This document shows, piece after piece, positions 336-7,382 of a DNA stretch of 34,637 nucleotides (positions are counted from its first letter, which is position 1; the number at the start of each line of letters is the position of its first letter). The notes beneath the pieces are model-generated. The model saw nothing but the letters and a program-made list of their open reading frames with translations. It did not search any database and was not told where the DNA came from. The stretch covers positions 1 to 34,637 of the forward strand of contig JAUTXM010000331.1 in NCBI GenBank assembly GCA_030838025.1. Reading direction: 5' to 3'. The position numbers and the translations under genes are program-made. The DNA comes from Acidimicrobiaceae bacterium (GTDB taxonomy: Bacteria > Actinomycetota > Acidimicrobiia > Acidimicrobiales > Palsa-688).

Positions 336-1592
336 ATGGAGGTGATGGCGCTGACCCGGTTGATCCACCACGTCCAACGCGTCGCACTGGGCGCGCGAAC
401 GACCTTCGCGGACGGCGAGCTCGTGGTTTCGACCGACGAGGCCGAGGGCATCATGGCCCACCCGGCGCTCGCCTCGGTGCGGCTCACCTGGGTCTCACCC
501 GGCGAATCGGCGCGGATCGTCAAGGTCCTCGACGCCGTCGAACCCCGTACCAAGGGCCCGGGTGGCGCCGGGATCTTTCCCGGCTTCGTCGGGCCTGCCC
601 GGACCCAAGGCGAAGGTGAGACCCACGTACTGCGCGGGGCGGCGGTGGTGGCGGCCGGTTTCCTGCCGAGGGCCCAGGAGGCACTGGTCGACCTGAGCGG
701 CCCCGCCGCCGCGCTGTCGCCGCTGGGCGCGACCCACAACTTGGTCGTCGAGTTCACCCCGGCGCCCGATGCCGGCTGGGAACACGTCGACGCCGCCCTC
801 CGCGCGGGTTCGCTGCGGCTGGCGGCTCGGCTGGCGGAAGCGGCGCTCGACGCCGAACCCGACGAGATCGAGGAACTCCCGTCGCCGTCGCCCATCCGTG
901 GCGACCGGCCTCGCATCGGCGCCGTCACCAACCTGCAGACCCAGGGCTTGTTCAAGGACGTCTTTGTCTACGGACGCAGTTTCGGCTCGTCGCTGCCCAC
1001 CCTGCTCGACCCCGGCGAGCTCGACGACGGCGCCGTGGTGAGTGGCCAGTTCGGCCATCCGGCCCTGAAGAACCCGACGTACATGCACCAGAACCACCCG
1101 GTCGTCAACGAGCTGCGCCGCCGCCACGGCCATGACCTCGACTTCGCGGGCCTGGTGATCTGCCCGGAACCGGTCAACCAGGCCGCCAAAGAACTGGTCT
1201 CGGCCTTCGCCGCCAAGGTGTGCGCCGCCGCGGGGTTCGACGCCGCCCTGGTCACCAAGGAGGGGGGCGGCAACGCCGACGCCGACATGGCCCTCAAGAT
1301 GGACGCGCTGGCCGACCTCGGGATCGAGGCGGTCGGGCTCTATGCCGAGATGGCCGGGATCGACGGCACCGGCCCATCCATCGTCGTGGCACCGGAGAAG
1401 GCAACCGCCATGGTCAGCACTGGCAACTACGACCACCGGCTGCAACTCCCCACGATGGACAGAGCACTCGGGGGCGACGAGTTCGCGCTGGTGCACGCTC
1501 CGGCCACATCGGCATTCGAGGTCCCCACGGCGGTGGTGTACTGCGCCCTCAGCCCGCTGGGCTGGGGACGGGTGACCGCCCGGGCCGGTTGA
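336..1592 (+). CDS. Glycine/sarcosine/betaine reductase component B alpha-like subunit (GrdE/GrdG/GrdI family), divergent
   Basis: Motifs of the GrdE family: DDGAVVSG..KNPTYMHQNHPVVNELRRRHG, ALVTKEGGGNADADMALKMDALADLGIEAVG, STGNYDHRLQLPTMDRALGG. Start taken at ATG 336 (GGGAG upstream); 288 and 345 are alternatives. Confidence 0.85.
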   Translation: MEVMALTRLIHHVQRVALGARTTFADGELVVSTDEAEGIMAHPALASVRLTWVSPGESARIVKVLDAVEPRTKGPGGAGIFPGFVGPARTQGEGETHVLRGAAVVAAGFLPRAQEALVDLSGPAAALSPLGATHNLVVEFTPAPDAGWEHVDAALRAGSLRLAARLAEAALDAEPDEIEELPSPSPIRGDRPRIGAVTNLQTQGLFKDVFVYGRSFGSSLPTLLDPGELDDGAVVSGQFGHPALKNPTYMHQNHPVVNELRRRHGHDLDFAGLVICPEPVNQAAKELVSAFAAKVCAAAGFDAALVTKEGGGNADADMALKMDALADLGIEAVGLYAEMAGIDGTGPSIVVAPEKATAMVSTGNYDHRLQLPTMDRALGGDEFALVHAPATSAFEVPTAVVYCALSPLGWGRVTARAG

Positions 1593-1605: not shown

Positions 1606-2952
1606 GTGGCGAACATCGTCCATTACATCAACCAGTTCTTCGCCGGCGTCGGGGGCGAGGACTCGGCCGGCTCCGGACCCACCCTCGTCATGGGACCGGT
1701 CGGCCCGGGACGCCGGCTGGCGGAACTGCTCGGTCCCGAGCACGAGATCGTGGCGACGGTGTGGTGCGGCGACGATGTCGCGTCGGGCATCGTCCCCGCA
1801 ATCATCGACCTGATCCGGTCCGTGGACGTGGACGGCGGTGTGGGCAGTGACGTGGACGGCGGTGTGGGCGGCGGTGTGGATCTGGTCGCGGCCGGGCCCG
1901 CCTTCACCAGCGGCCGCTACGGCCTGGCGTGTGCCCGGGTGGCCGCCGCGGCTCACGACGCGGGCTGGCTGGCCGTGGCCTCCATGCACGAGGACAACCC
2001 GGGACTGGACGAGGCGGGCGCCACCCCGGTCGTCGCCAGCGGCGAGGTGGCCCGCCGCATGGCGCCATCGCTCGACCGCCTCGCCGGCGCCGTAACAAAG
2101 CTTCTCCGCCACGAACCCCTGACCGCGGCCGACGGCCGCATCGGCAAGCTGGCCCGACTGACGGTCATGGCCGACGCCCGCGCGGCCGAACGGGCTGTCG
2201 ACCTGGCGCTGGTTCGTCTCGCCGGCGACCACACGGCCACCGAGATCCCGCTGCCCCGGTTCGACCAGGTGACGCCCGCGGCACCGGTGGAGGACCTGAC
2301 GACCGCGATGGTCGCCCTGGTGACCGAGGGCGGATTGGTCCCCGACGACAATCCCGGCGCCCTCGAGTCGGCCCGGGCCACCCGGTGGTTGCGTTACCCG
2401 ATCGGAAACCTCGACGCCCTGATGGCGGGGGAGTGGCGGTCGATCCACGGTGGGTTCTCCACCGCGTATGCCAACGACGATCCCCACCGCATCCTGCCGC
2501 TCGACGTCGGGCGCCAGCTAGTGGCCGACGGCGCCGTCGGTTCCCTGTTCGCCGAGTACTTCGTGACGACCGGCAACGGCACCTCGGTGGCCAACGCCCG
2601 CCGTTTCGGCATCGAATGGGCCGCCGACCTCCGCCACTCCGGGGCCCGGGCCGCCATCCTCACGGCCACGTGAGGAACGGGCACGCGTTGCGGGGCAACG
2701 CTGGCGAAGGAACTGGAGCGGGCGGGTATCCCGACCGTGCTGCTGTGCAACCTGATCTCGATCGCCGAGCGGGTCGGGGCACCACGCATCGTGCCCACGC
2801 GTGGTATTCCGTACCCGACGGGCGACCCGTCCCTCACTCCCGAGGCCGAGAAGGCGTGGCGTCGCCGCCTGCTCGATCGGGCCCTGGAGGCGCTGGCGAC
2901 GACCGTCCATCAACCCACCGTGTTCGAAGTGCCCGAGGAGGCCCGTGCCTGA
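1606..2952 (+). CDS. Glycine/sarcosine/betaine reductase selenoprotein B-like (GrdB/GrdF/GrdH family), selenocysteine at in-frame UGA 2671-2673
   Basis: GTG start; N-term ANIVHYINQFFAGVGGE is typical of GrdB. The frame reads ...AAILTAT-U-GTGTRCGATLAKELERAGIPTVLLCNLISIAERVGAPRIVPTRGIPYPTGDPSL... through TGA 2671-2673 to TGA 2950-2952. The track's 1606-2673 and 2737-2952 ORFs are the two halves in the same frame. Confidence 0.9.
2671..2673 (+). other. Selenocysteine-encoding in-frame UGA codon (GrdB-like)
   Basis: Family-conserved Sec position (T-U-GT.TRCGAT); the downstream 92 codons in the same frame keep GrdB C-terminal homology. Confidence 0.9.
2685..2701 (+). promoter_or_regulatory. Candidate bacterial SECIS hairpin downstream of the GrdB-like UGA
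   Basis: GCGTTGC-GGG-GCAACGC, perfect 7-bp stem (or 6 bp with a 5-nt loop CGGGG); loop about 21 nt after the UGA, within the spacing expected for bacterial SECIS elements. Confidence 0.65.
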
Positions 2953-4360
2953 TGTCGTGATTTCGGCCGCTGCCCAGGTGCTGGCCCATGTTCCGTTGCT
3001 GGCTCGCCACGGATCCAAGCCCCGTCGTGAGCTGCCCAAGGACCCGAACGTGGCGGCGGCGTTCGCAGCCGCGCTGCGCCCCTTTTCCCAGGCCCTGGCC
3101 TATCCGGCCAACCAGGCCTACATCAACGCCCTTCACCCACGCGACCTTCCGGCCCGGCCGTGGAGCGACCTTGCCGGGGCGACGCGCTGGAGCCGCGCAG
3201 GCGAGATCATGCCCGAGGAGGAGTTCCTGGGGTTGCTGGCGGCAATGGACGACTTCGACCTGCTGACCCTGTCGAGCGACGCCGCGGCCCAGGCGGCGGC
3301 GGCGCTGGCCCGCCACCCGCTGGCCAAGCGCCTCGACCTCGAGCGCGTCGAGCGGGCCCAAGGTGATGTGCACGCCGTGGCCTCCGAAGCGGGCGCCCTC
3401 GACGTGATTGCCGACCGCGCCGCCTTCCGGTGCGGCCAGGTTGGTGACGAGGCGCTGTCGGCGCACGTGCTGATCGACAACCTGGCGGCCAAGGCGACCG
3501 CGACGCTGGCCCTGTTGCATCTCCTGGAGAGCAGCGGGATCGACCCGGCGTCGGTGGACTACGTGCTGGGTTGCGGTGAGGAGGCCATCGGGGACCGTTA
3601 CCAGCGTGGCGGGGGCAACATGGCCAAGGCGGTGGCCGAGGCGGCAGGCCTCAGCGAGGCGTCGGGGGCGGACATCAAGAACTTCTGTGCCGCGCCCGTG
3701 CCCGCCCTCGTCATCGCCGCCAGCCTGGTCTCCTCCGGAGTGTTCCGGCGGGTGGCGGTGGTCGGCGGTGGGTGCATGGCGAAGCTGGGGATGAAGTTCC
3801 AGGGTCACCTCAAGGCGGGAATGCCGATCCTGGAGGACGTGCTCGGCGGCGCCGCCGCCCTGGTGCAGGCCGACGACGGCGTCTCGCCCCGAATTCGCCT
3901 CGACGGGGTAGGTCGCCACAAGGTGTCGGCGGGCGGTTCCAACCCCCAGGTCATGGAGGCGCTGGCGGGTGTGCCGCGCACCCGCCTCGGCCTGGCCATG
4001 ACCGACGTCGACGACTACGCCACCGAGTTGCACAACCCCGAGGTCACCGAGCCCCAGGGCTCGGGCAACGTTCCCGAGCGCAACTACCGGACCATCGCCG
4101 CCCTGGCGGCCCGCAAGGGCGACATCGCCAAGGACCAGATCCCGGCGTTCGTGGCCGAGCGCGGGATGCCCGGTTTCAGCCCCACGCAGGGCCACCTGGC
4201 GTCGTCGCTGTGTTACCTCCCCCACGCCGTGGACCGCCTAACGACGGGCGGGGCGAATAGAGTGATGCTCATCGCCAAGGGAAGCTTGTTCCTTGGGCGG
4301 GTGTGCCAGTTGTCCGATGGAATGAGCGTCCTGCTCGAAAGGAACGGCCGCCTTCAGTGA
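2945..4360 (+). CDS. grdC: Glycine reductase complex component C subunit beta (GrdC)
   Basis: GTG start at 2945 with GAGGAGG upstream, overlapping the GrdB-like end by 8 bp. Motifs IKNFCAAPVPALVIAASLVSSGVF, KLGMKFQGHLKAGMPILEDVLGG, DDYATELHNPEVTEPQGSGNVPERNYR, MPGFSPTQGHLASS, LFLGRVCQLSDGMSVLLE. Confidence 0.88.
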   Translation: MPDVVISAAAQVLAHVPLLARHGSKPRRELPKDPNVAAAFAAALRPFSQALAYPANQAYINALHPRDLPARPWSDLAGATRWSRAGEIMPEEEFLGLLAAMDDFDLLTLSSDAAAQAAAALARHPLAKRLDLERVERAQGDVHAVASEAGALDVIADRAAFRCGQVGDEALSAHVLIDNLAAKATATLALLHLLESSGIDPASVDYVLGCGEEAIGDRYQRGGGNMAKAVAEAAGLSEASGADIKNFCAAPVPALVIAASLVSSGVFRRVAVVGGGCMAKLGMKFQGHLKAGMPILEDVLGGAAALVQADDGVSPRIRLDGVGRHKVSAGGSNPQVMEALAGVPRTRLGLAMTDVDDYATELHNPEVTEPQGSGNVPERNYRTIAALAARKGDIAKDQIPAFVAERGMPGFSPTQGHLASSLCYLPHAVDRLTTGGANRVMLIAKGSLFLGRVCQLSDGMSVLLERNGRLQ

Positions 4361-4370
4361 GAAGAGCGTC

Positions 4371-4721
4371 ATGAGCGACACAGAAGGCGCCACCGCCGTC
4401 GTCGAGGCGACCCGGGACAACTTCAAGGATCTGGTGGCCGAGGGCACGGTGCTGGTCGACGTCTGGGGCCCCGACTGCCGCCCCTGCCTGGCGCTGAACC
4501 CCCATGTCACGACCCTGGCCGAGAAGTACGCTGGCCGGGTCAAGGTCGTCAAGCTCGAGGCGCCCAAGGCCCGGCGGTTGTGCATGGAACTCAGCATCAT
4601 GGGCATGCCCGCCTTCCTCTTGTTCCGTGACGGCAAAGAGGTGGCCCGCCTGGCCGACCCGGCGCTCACGCCATTGCGACTCAACCAATGGGTCGACGAA
4701 CAAGCGAAGGGGGTGAGTTGA
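4371..4721 (+). CDS. Thioredoxin-family protein with WGPDCRPC active site, Grd-associated
   Basis: Thioredoxin fold sequence: VLVDVWGPDCRPCLALNPHVTTLAEKYAGRVKVVKLEAPKARRLCMELSIMGMPAFLLFRDGKEV; lies between grdC and grdA. Confidence 0.85.
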   Translation: MSDTEGATAVVEATRDNFKDLVAEGTVLVDVWGPDCRPCLALNPHVTTLAEKYAGRVKVVKLEAPKARRLCMELSIMGMPAFLLFRDGKEVARLADPALTPLRLNQWVDEQAKGVS

Positions 4722-5179
4722 GACCCGTGCTCAAGGACCGGTTGGTGATCGCCCTTGGTGAGCGCGACGGCATCTCGGGGCTGGCCATTGCGGCCTGCGC
4801 CACCGCTGCGGGGGCCCAGGTGGCCTTCGTAGCCACCGAGTGCTTCGTCTGAACTGCGTCTGGAGCCATGGACCTGCAGAGCCAGGAGGCAATCTTCCGG
4901 CTCGCCCAAGCCAACGACCCCAAGTCGCTGCTCGTACTGCTCGGCGCTCCTGACCCGGAGGCGGCCGAGATCTCAGCCGAGACGGTGATCCTGGGGGACC
5001 CGGCCTACGCAGGCGCCCTGGCTGGGGCCCAGTTGGGCCTCGACGTGTACCACGTGCTGGACGACGACGTGAAGGCCGACGTGCCCGACGACGTCTGGGA
5101 GGAGCAGATCGGCCTCATGGCCGATGTGCTCGACGCCGACGCCCTGTCGGCGGCGGTGCGCTCGATGCACCAGACCTGA
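4718..5179 (+). CDS. grdA: Glycine/sarcosine/betaine reductase complex selenoprotein A (GrdA), selenocysteine at in-frame UGA 4850-4852
   Basis: LVIALGERDGISGLAIAACATAAGAQVAFVATECFV-U-TASGAMDLQSQEAIFRLAQANDPKSLLVLLGAPDPEAAEISAETVILGDPAYAGALAGAQLGLDVYHVLDDDVKADVPDDVWEEQIG. The ECFVUTA(A/S)GAMD Sec motif is the hallmark of GrdA. TTG start at 4718 (after AAGGGGG, overlapping the Trx stop) or GTG at 4727. The ORF track shows only the post-UGA part (4868-5179). Confidence 0.92.
4850..4852 (+). other. Selenocysteine-encoding in-frame UGA codon (GrdA)
   Basis: GAG TGC TTC GTC TGA ACT GCG TCT GGA GCC ATG GAC = ECFV-U-TASGAMD, the CxxU redox motif of GrdA. Confidence 0.92.
4854..4879 (+). promoter_or_regulatory. 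Candidate SECIS hairpin of grdA
   Basis: CTGCGTC ... GAC-ct-GCAG: a 4 bp + 3 bp stem with a 2-nt bulge and 10-nt apical loop right after the UGA. Weaker than the GrdB-like hairpin. Confidence 0.4.
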
Positions 5180-5660: not shown

Positions 5661-7382
5661 TTGGGCGCTCAGGGGTCGACGGGCAACGCTCGCCATTCGC
5701 GGCCGCTTTCGGGCCTTGGTCGAATGTTCGGGCGTCGTCGCTCGGCGGTCACCGCCGCCGCCATGGCCTTGGCCATGGTCATTGTTCCCCTGTCGCCCGC
5801 GCCGGCGTCGGCGTCGGCGAGCCTCCTGGGGTTGCCCACGAGCCGGGTCATCGTCACGGGACCGGGCATCGCCGGTGCCAGCACCCTCGTGACCGGCCTC
5901 GGTGGCCAGGTCGTCAACGCCCTCCCGGTTGTCGGCGGAATCGTCGCTGACGTCCCCTCGGTCCTCCTCGGTGCGCTGGGGGCCATTCCTGGCGTGGTCG
6001 TCACTCCAGACGTGCCGGTCTCGGTCGCTGAGGGTGGCACGGGCAGCCCCGGCCGGCCGCCGGCCGCCGTGTACCCCGCCGCGACCGGTGCCAGCCAGCT
6101 CGCCGCCAGTGGCAACACCGGCCAAGGGGTCCGAGTGGCGGTGCTCGACACGGGCGTCGCCAACCTCCCCGACTTCGCGGGACGCCTGGTCGGTGGCGTC
6201 GACCTGAGCGGCGAGAACAATCCCTTCCGGGACAGCTACGGCCACGGGACCTTCGTCGCCGGGCTCATCGCGGGCAACGGTGCGTCCTCCGGGGGCCAGT
6301 ACTCCGGTGAGGCGCCGGGAGCCGACCTGGTGTCGGTGAAGGTGGCGGGGTCGTCGGGAAAGACGGATTTGGCGACCCTCCTCCTGGGCGTCGGCTGGGT
6401 CGTCGACCATCAGGCCAGTGATCACATCGGGGTGCTGAACATGTCCCTCGGCGCCGCCCCGTTCGCGTCGACGGTGCTGAACCCCCTCGACATGGCGGTC
6501 GAAGCGGCTTGGCGCAGCGGCGTTGCGGTGGTCGCGTCGGCCGGGAACGCCGGGCCGTTCAACGGCACCATCCTCACTCCGGGCGATGACCCGCTCGTCA
6601 TCACGGTGGGCGCGCTGGACGACCACGGCACCGCCAGCGTGGCCGACGACACGATGGCGGACTTCAGCAGCGTTGGTCCCACCACTCCCGACGGCTGGTT
6701 CAAGCCCGACCTGGTGGCTTCGGGACGCTCCGTCGTCAGCCTCCGGGTTGCCGGCTCCACCCTCGATCGGGCGTACCCCTCGGCCCGCATCGGCAGCGCC
6801 AACTTCGTCGGTTCCGGTACCTCGTTCAGCGCCGCCATCACCAGCGGCGCGGCGGCACTGGCGCTCCAGGACGGGACGATCGCCCATCAGCCCGATGCCC
6901 TCAAGGCCAAGCTGCTAGGAGGGGCGACCAACGGGCCGGTGGGCAACCCGTTCGTCGATGGCCATGGCTCGCTCAACGCCTATTGGGCCGCGCTGGCGCA
7001 AAACGTCAGCCTGCAGCAGACCGCCCCGCTGCTTCCGGCACTGCCCCTGATTCCCGTCTCGCTCGCGACCACGTGGAGCGGCTCGGCGTGGAATGGCAGC
7101 GCCTGGAACGGGTCGGCGTGGAACGGGTCGGCGTGGAACGGCAGCGCCTGGAACGGGTCGGCGTGGAACGGGTCGGCCTGGAATGGGTCGGCCTGGAACG
7201 GGTCGGCCTGGAATGGGTCGGCCTGGAATGGCAGCGCCTGGAATGGCAGCGCCTGGAACGGCTCGGCGTGGAACGGGTCGGCGTGGAACGGTTCCGCCTG
7301 GAATGGCTCGGCGTGGAACGGGTCCGCTTGGAACGGGTCGGCATGGAACGGTTCCGCCTGGAATGGCTCGGCGTGGAACTGA
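5661..7382 (+). CDS. Secreted subtilisin-like (S8) serine protease with C-terminal SAWNG pentapeptide repeat domain
   Basis: Signal peptide (FGRRRSAVTAAAMALAMVIVPLSPAPASASA); catalytic motifs VAVLDTGVANLPDFAG (Asp), SYGHGTFVAGLIAG (His), GSGTSFSAAITSGAAAL (Ser); 20 SAWNG-type repeats to the stop. Start TTG 5661 or ATG 5724. Confidence 0.88.
   Translation: MGAQGSTGNARHSRPLSGLGRMFGRRRSAVTAAAMALAMVIVPLSPAPASASASLLGLPTSRVIVTGPGIAGASTLVTGLGGQVVNALPVVGGIVADVPSVLLGALGAIPGVVVTPDVPVSVAEGGTGSPGRPPAAVYPAATGASQLAASGNTGQGVRVAVLDTGVANLPDFAGRLVGGVDLSGENNPFRDSYGHGTFVAGLIAGNGASSGGQYSGEAPGADLVSVKVAGSSGKTDLATLLLGVGWVVDHQASDHIGVLNMSLGAAPFASTVLNPLDMAVEAAWRSGVAVVASAGNAGPFNGTILTPGDDPLVITVGALDDHGTASVADDTMADFSSVGPTTPDGWFKPDLVASGRSVVSLRVAGSTLDRAYPSARIGSANFVGSGTSFSAAITSGAAALALQDGTIAHQPDALKAKLLGGATNGPVGNPFVDGHGSLNAYWAALAQNVSLQQTAPLLPALPLIPVSLATTWSGSAWNGSAWNGSAWNGSAWNGSAWNGSAWNGSAWNGSAWNGSAWNGSAWNGSAWNGSAWNGSAWNGSAWNGSAWNGSAWNGSAWNGSAWNGSAWNGSAWN
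7083..7379 (+). repeat. In-frame 15-bp tandem repeat array (about 19.8 units) encoding SAWNG
   Basis: Units of the type TCG GCG TGG AAC GGG with synonymous variants (AGC GCC TGG AAT GGC, TCC GCC TGG AAT GGC); 19 complete pentapeptides plus a terminal SAWN. Confidence 0.95.

What the first reader, a model, noticed from the sequence alone, without database searches (positions are those of the whole stretch)
1035..1100. GrdE-like subunit has lost the pyruvoyl-forming Asn-Cys processing site
Canonical GrdE/GrdG proproteins are cleaved before a Cys that becomes the pyruvoyl group, in a region I recall as DGA(I/V)VSGNCVSACDKNTTY. Here the aligned segment is DGAVVSGQFGHPALKNPTY: both Cys of that segment are gone and no Asn-Cys dipeptide occurs anywhere in the protein. 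Without pyruvoyl, Schiff-base activation of an amino substrate is not expected, implying a different substrate or mechanism.
Basis: partly seen in the sequence, partly recalled or inferred. Interest (0 to 1): 0.78.

Follow-up and report, generated by a model that had tools for sequence, protein, structure and literature searches.

The report
Pyruvoyl-less glycine-reductase-type selenoenzyme
A selenium enzyme related to glycine reductase, found across respiring soil actinobacteria, has replaced the cysteine that normally becomes its built-in pyruvoyl cofactor with an invariant Gln-x-Gly-His-Pro motif, so it probably attacks a different small acid than glycine; similar cofactor loss was already known in the betaine and fluoroacetate reductases.

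Summary
The GrdE-like protein (336-1592) aligns without gaps to GrdE/GrdG; at the processing site SGN-C-VSAC it reads SGQ-F-GHPA (1026-1082), and no Asn-Cys occurs anywhere.

It is not decay. All 51 loci of one scan (window included), all actinobacterial, carry SGQ[F/Y/L]GHPxL[K/R]N and form one fully supported branch. The operon is E-B-C-(thioredoxin)-A with in-frame TGA (Sec) in GrdB and GrdA; the genome holds tRNA-Sec and selB. GrdD was not found.

Losing this cysteine is not new in itself: betaine GrdI reads SGSFMPCSSK, and fluoroacetate FarE is reported to lack both cysteines. In glycine reductase the GrdE pyruvoyl may not even be the substrate-binding carbonyl.

Better support for an unusual substrate comes from the partner GrdB: the Asp of HGGxD, conserved in the glycine, sarcosine and betaine types, is Ser/Ala in 39 of 39; the Ser before Sec is Ala in 35 of 39; the first Cys after Sec is Gly in all.

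Best reading: a pyruvoyl-free protein B for an X-CH2-COO- substrate needing no Schiff base, feeding GrdA/GrdC, probably to acetyl-CoA. Substrate unknown. New variant of a known kind.

The parts
336..1592 (+). GrdE-like subunit of protein B (418 aa), QxGHP type, predicted not to be a proprotein
   Evidence: Pfam PF09338 335 bits; NCBIfam GrdG 240 bits (cut-off 780), FarE 130 bits (cut-off 675)
1026..1082 (+). Former processing site: DGAVVSGQFGHPALKNPTY, with Q238 (1047-1049) and F239 (1050-1052) in place of Asn-Cys, and H241-P242 (1056-1061)
1606..2952 (+). GrdB-like selenoprotein subunit of protein B (448 aa with TGA read as Sec)
   Evidence: PF07355 325 bits, TIGR01918 395 bits over cut-off 65; TGA at this position in 44 of 45 loci where it is covered
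2455..2460 (+). GrdB F284-S285 (HGGFS), where the other Grd types have Asp at 285
2665..2691 (+). GrdB Sec site ATUGTGTRC: Ala354 in place of Ser, Sec356 (TGA 2671-2673), Gly359 in place of Cys, Cys362 kept
2685..2701 (+). 7-bp hairpin 11 nt after the TGA, a possible bacterial SECIS (not tested against a SECIS model; folding z-score of the region only -1.2)
2945..4360 (+). GrdC (protein C subunit beta), GTG start; thiolase-type Cys247 of P0003 kept
   Evidence: NF040746 545 bits over cut-off 450; Cys column invariant
4371..4721 (+). Thioredoxin with a CRPC active site
   Evidence: PF00085; ThioredTrxAClost 87 bits, below its cut-off of 140
4718..5179 (+). GrdA selenoprotein, Sec45 = TGA 4850-4852 in ECFVUTASGAM
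   Evidence: NF040748 182 bits over cut-off 130; PF04723; TGA in 41 of 41 loci

Best explanation
The protein is the large, uncleaved subunit of a glycine-reductase-type protein B that works without a GrdE-derived pyruvoyl group. Shown by sequence: the processing Cys is replaced by F/Y/L inside an invariant QxGHP motif, within a Sec-encoding E-B-C-Trx-A operon conserved across Actinomycetota and without GrdD. Inferred: the selenolate of GrdB displaces X from an X-CH2-COO- substrate whose X leaves without being turned into a Schiff base (the Gln/His of the motif possibly helping to bind the substrate or protonate X). The carboxymethyl group then passes to Sec of GrdA, and GrdC turns it into an acetyl thioester that, without GrdD, most likely ends as acetyl-CoA rather than acetyl-phosphate. 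Thioredoxin restores the reduced selenoproteins. The substrate is probably not glycine, and the loss of the conserved Asp in GrdB suggests that X may not be a cationic amine.
For: Gap-free alignment and motif; F/Y/L at the position in every member. The QxGHP group is one side of a branch at 100/100 in the GrdE tree and 99 in the GrdB tree. Strong conservation at the site. Operon and both TGA codons conserved; tRNA-Sec and selB in the genome; selA/selB/selD-like families beside the operon in other members. GrdB changes: D285 to S/A 39/39, S354 to A 35/39, C359 to G 39/39. No GrdD over cut-off in 8 genomes or in the flanks. Acetate kinase in only 5 of 14 genomes of the clade. Catalytic-type Cys of GrdC invariant. 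Precedents for pyruvoyl-free members: GrdI, FarE (PMC10838667).
Against: No substrate, activity or protein has been observed. The role of the GrdE pyruvoyl in substrate binding is itself disputed. What the Asp of HGGxD does is inferred, not known. The window's own genome does have an acetate kinase. No transporter or substrate gene is conserved next to the operon. No solved structure of this fold was found.
Confidence: 0.6

Rival explanations
1. It is still a glycine or sarcosine reductase: the substrate-binding carbonyl sits in GrdB, and the pyruvoyl of GrdE is dispensable for catalysis, so its loss changes nothing about the substrate.
For: Published view that the GrdE pyruvoyl only keeps GrdB active, with a separate carbonyl in GrdB (PMC9908766). 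GrdA and GrdC are canonical. Window GrdB retains the YxNx(6)GGE, CGD and TxGNxTxV elements of the published glycine motif (motif from PMC9751293).
Against: GrdB lacks the AHGGxD and GPxF[NF]A parts of that motif in all members. The proposed Ser carbonyl source is Ala in 35 of 39. The site is replaced by a different invariant motif rather than drifting.
Confidence: 0.2
2. It is a betaine reductase (GrdI/GrdH type) that has diverged within Actinomycetota.
For: GrdI also lacks the Asn-Cys site (SGSFMPCSSK), and a quaternary amine cannot form a Schiff base (chemistry).
Against: GrdI and the QxGHP group are separate branches. GrdH keeps the Asp and UxxC that this clade lacks. GrdH model score 356 against cut-off 775. 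No BCCT transporter in the flanks.
Confidence: 0.12
3. A carbonyl cofactor is still formed, but from a different residue of GrdE (for example a conserved Ser or Thr) or by another enzyme.
For: Several Ser/Thr are invariant in the clade, and Ser-derived pyruvoyl enzymes exist (general knowledge).
Against: No Cys is conserved across the whole clade, and no gene family other than selenium genes is widely conserved beside the operon.
Confidence: 0.06
4. The gene is a decaying or mis-assembled copy.
For: It lies 336 bases from the end of a MAG contig.
Against: 51 loci share the motif, and most show the whole operon with both Sec codons.
Confidence: 0.02

Closest known systems
Glycine reductase / sarcosine reductase protein B (GrdE-GrdB, GrdG-GrdF)
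   Same: Same Pfam families PF09338/PF07355, adjacent E-B genes, Sec in GrdB, dedicated GrdA, GrdC and thioredoxin
   Different: No Asn-Cys processing site; GrdB lacks the Asp of HGGxD and the first Cys of UxxCxxC; no GrdD; 33% identity
Betaine reductase protein B (GrdI-GrdH)
   Same: GrdI lacks the Asn-Cys site and is described as not a proprotein (PMC10838667)
   Different: Different replacement motif (SGSFMPCSSK versus SGQFGHPALK), separate branch, GrdH keeps Asp and UxxC
Fluoroacetate reductase FarE-FarB (Synergistota)
   Same: FarE lacks both processing Cys and FarB lacks the CxxC; works on an acetate with a non-amine leaving group (PMC10838667)
   Different: Only 130 bits to the FarE model against a cut-off of 675; the rSAM and antiporter of the far operon are not seen as conserved neighbours; the FarE sequence itself could not be aligned here
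D-proline reductase PrdA
   Same: Distant homologue around the processing region (42 bits)
   Different: PrdA of Terrisporobacter has Thr-Cys at the corresponding region; here no Cys
Other actinobacterial GrdE-like groups (SGVYVYACYK and CGWNAIACMRE types)
   Same: Also lack Asn-Cys; their GrdB also has Gly (one Ser) in place of the first Cys
   Different: Separate branches; GrdB keeps the Asp of HGGxD; operon E-B-C-A or E-B alone

Membership tests
Gly_reductase (PF09338) superfamily, component B subunit | Full-length match to the profile | tested here: met
   335 bits over 2-425 of 426
Canonical GrdE/GrdG proprotein | Asn-Cys processing site that yields an N-terminal pyruvoyl | tested here: not met
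   SGQF at SGNC; no NC in the protein
Canonical GrdE/GrdG proprotein | NCBIfam GrdG model cut-off (780 bits) | tested here: not met
   239.7 bits; note that glycine GrdE of A. noterae, 665 bits, also misses this sarcosine-specific cut-off
Canonical GrdE/GrdG proprotein | Observed cleavage into two chains with a carbonyl N-terminus | not testable with these tools
   needs protein
Glycine reductase (full complex) | GrdA and GrdB selenoproteins | tested here: met
   in-frame TGA in conserved contexts, GrdA and selenoprotein B models over cut-off, tRNA-Sec and selB in genome
Glycine reductase (full complex) | Protein C made of GrdC and GrdD | tested here: not met
   GrdC present; GrdD not over cut-off in any of 8 genomes; the window genome is 79% complete but others are up to 97%
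Glycine-type GrdB | Published motif with AHGGxD and GPxF[NF]AGRYG (PMC9751293) | tested here: not met
   IHGGFS and GPAFTSGRYG
Betaine reductase GrdH/GrdI | NCBIfam betaine_GrdH cut-off and grouping with GrdI | tested here: not met
   356 bits versus 775; separate branch
Fluoroacetate reductase FarE | NCBIfam FarE cut-off (675 bits) | tested here: not met
   130.5 bits; best member of the clade E 2.2e-45
Fluoroacetate reductase FarE | Absence of both processing Cys | tested here: met
   the FarE statement itself is from PMC10838667

The most novel reading that the evidence does not exclude
A widespread but undescribed Sec-dependent reductase of respiring soil Actinomycetota that removes a non-amine group from a substituted acetate (for example a halogenated or oxygen-, sulfur- or phosphorus-substituted acetate) without any carbonyl cofactor, and delivers acetyl-CoA through GrdC alone, without GrdD.
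Probability: 0.3. Interest if true: 0.78.

Novelty: new variant of a known kind. Interest (0 to 1): 0.52.

Why it matters
Glycine-reductase-type enzymes are known mainly as anaerobic energy-conserving systems of fermenting bacteria. Here a coherent, pyruvoyl-free, GrdD-less version is spread over Actinomycetota, and all 14 genomes checked also carry haem-copper oxidases. If the substrate is not an amine, the family would give a natural test of what the GrdE pyruvoyl does, an open question in glycine reductase, and might reveal an overlooked route by which soil bacteria break C-X bonds in small acids. The UGA codons also mean that ordinary gene calling can truncate GrdB and GrdA in these genomes.

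Tried and rejected
Decay or assembly error: rejected, 51 conserved loci. Processing Cys elsewhere in the protein: rejected, no NC and no Cys conserved across the clade. Ser/Thr-derived pyruvoyl at the same place: rejected for that position, which is F/Y/L. Betaine reductase by orthology: not supported. PDB homologues by sequence or fold: none, so the pocket could not be examined; AlphaFold models were good for GrdE (pLDDT 84, pTM 0.88) and weaker for GrdB (pTM 0.54), but coordinates are not readable here and no complex could be modelled. Viral contigs: no relatives. Neighbour genes as substrate clue: nothing widely conserved beyond sel genes; Pfam was not run on the neighbours. PrdA as outgroup: branch too long, so the trees are unrooted and the direction of change (loss or gain of the Cys site) is not settled.

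Full report
What was checked. The ORF 336-1592 (418 aa from ATG 336) is a full-length PF09338 protein. The quoted peptide lies at residues 231-249, 1026-1082. It aligns gap-free with GrdE of Acetoanaerobium noterae (SGNCVSACDKNPTY), GrdG of Peptoclostridium acidaminophilum (SGNCVAPCDKVTTF) and a Photobacterium homologue (SGNCVSACDKNTSF), and reads SGQFGHPALKNPTY. The A. noterae record is unannotated; I call its gene GrdE because it sits in a Trx-E-A-B-C-D cluster. The window protein has three Cys (276, 296, 403), none next to Asn.

Surroundings. The gene heads an operon with GrdB (1606-2952, in-frame TGA 2671, context ILTATUGTGTRCGAT), GrdC (2945-4360), thioredoxin (4371-4721) and GrdA (4718-5179, TGA 4850, context TECFVUTASGAM). 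GrdC and GrdA pass their NCBIfam cut-offs. The genome has a tRNA-Sec over the gathering score and selB just over cut-off. No GrdD reaches its cut-off in this genome or in seven others with GrdE-like genes; the weak hits are at most 31 bits against a cut-off of 350, and the same search also rings in 7 of 14 control genomes.

Relatives. A scan of GTDB representative genomes found 50 loci, all titled as actinobacterial MAGs (Acidimicrobiia, Thermoleophilaceae/Solirubrobacteraceae, Pseudonocardiales and others); the phylum-wide search added ten loci of the same type, some of them the same genomes. The scan used two short exact peptides, so its restriction to this phylum is not proof. The order E-B-C-(Trx)-A and the two TGA codons are conserved: TGA at the GrdB site in 44 of 45 loci (the exception, L042, is a split frame) and at the GrdA site in 41 of 41. 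All 51 sequences of the scan plus window carry GQ[F/Y/L]GHP, as do the ten further loci. The site is jointly the most invariant stretch of the protein. The group is one side of a branch with 100/100 support in GrdE and 99 in GrdB.

Partner changes. In the GrdB alignment the Asp of HGGxD is present in all 16 sequences of the other groups, including betaine GrdH, and is Ser (29) or Ala (10) in all 39 of this group. The Ser before Sec is Ala in 35 of 39. The Cys three after Sec is Gly in 39 of 39, as in nearly all of the other actinobacterial groups, while the second Cys is kept. PMC10838667 names that Ser as a candidate source of a formylglycine carbonyl and reports loss of the CxxC in FarB.

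What it means. Loss of the pyruvoyl site is known for betaine GrdI (seen here in Enterococcus gilvus and A. noterae, beside GrdH and a BCCT transporter) and is reported for FarE. Glycine reductase may not use the GrdE pyruvoyl to bind glycine at all (PMC9908766). All 14 clade genomes tested have COX1 and only 5 have acetate kinase, which fits acetyl-CoA formation in a respiring cell better than acetyl-phosphate fermentation; the window's own genome is among the five with the kinase, so this is suggestive only.

Limits. No substrate is shown. The trees are unrooted and hold few canonical sequences (three GrdE/GrdG, two GrdI). No structure of this fold was found in the PDB by sequence or fold search. 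The window's genome is 79% complete and the operon begins at a contig end, so its own upstream neighbour is unseen; other loci show no widely conserved neighbour except selenium genes, which I named from their sequences, not from a profile search. I found no paper describing this actinobacterial clade in the open-access library, which does not hold most subscription journals.

Noticed in passing
window 2945-4360, GrdC residue C422 of P0003: A Cys specific to this clade (42 of 44) stands where canonical GrdC has Pro, near the C-terminal end; it could compensate for a missing GrdD acetyl-thioester Cys. The other GrdD-less actinobacterial group keeps Pro.
   Followed up: partly
L092, L093, L095-L098 (other actinobacterial group): E-B-C-A operons without adjacent GrdD or thioredoxin, processing site SGVYVYACYKNPT, Sec codons kept.
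   Followed up: partly
L099-L103 (actinobacterial family f45): Stand-alone E-B pairs with site CGWNAIACMRE and GrdB with UGTGTRS, both Cys after Sec lost; no GrdA or GrdC nearby.
   Followed up: partly
L053 and L057 (flanks): selA- and selB-like genes (and selD-like in L053) lie next to the operon, suggesting that the Sec system and this operon may travel together.
   Followed up: partly
window 7060-7382: C-terminus of a subtilisin-like protease made of about 20 copies of the pentapeptide GSAWN.
   Followed up: no
window 2671 and 4850: The two in-frame TGA codons make ordinary ORF calling truncate GrdB and start GrdA at an internal Met.
   Followed up: yes
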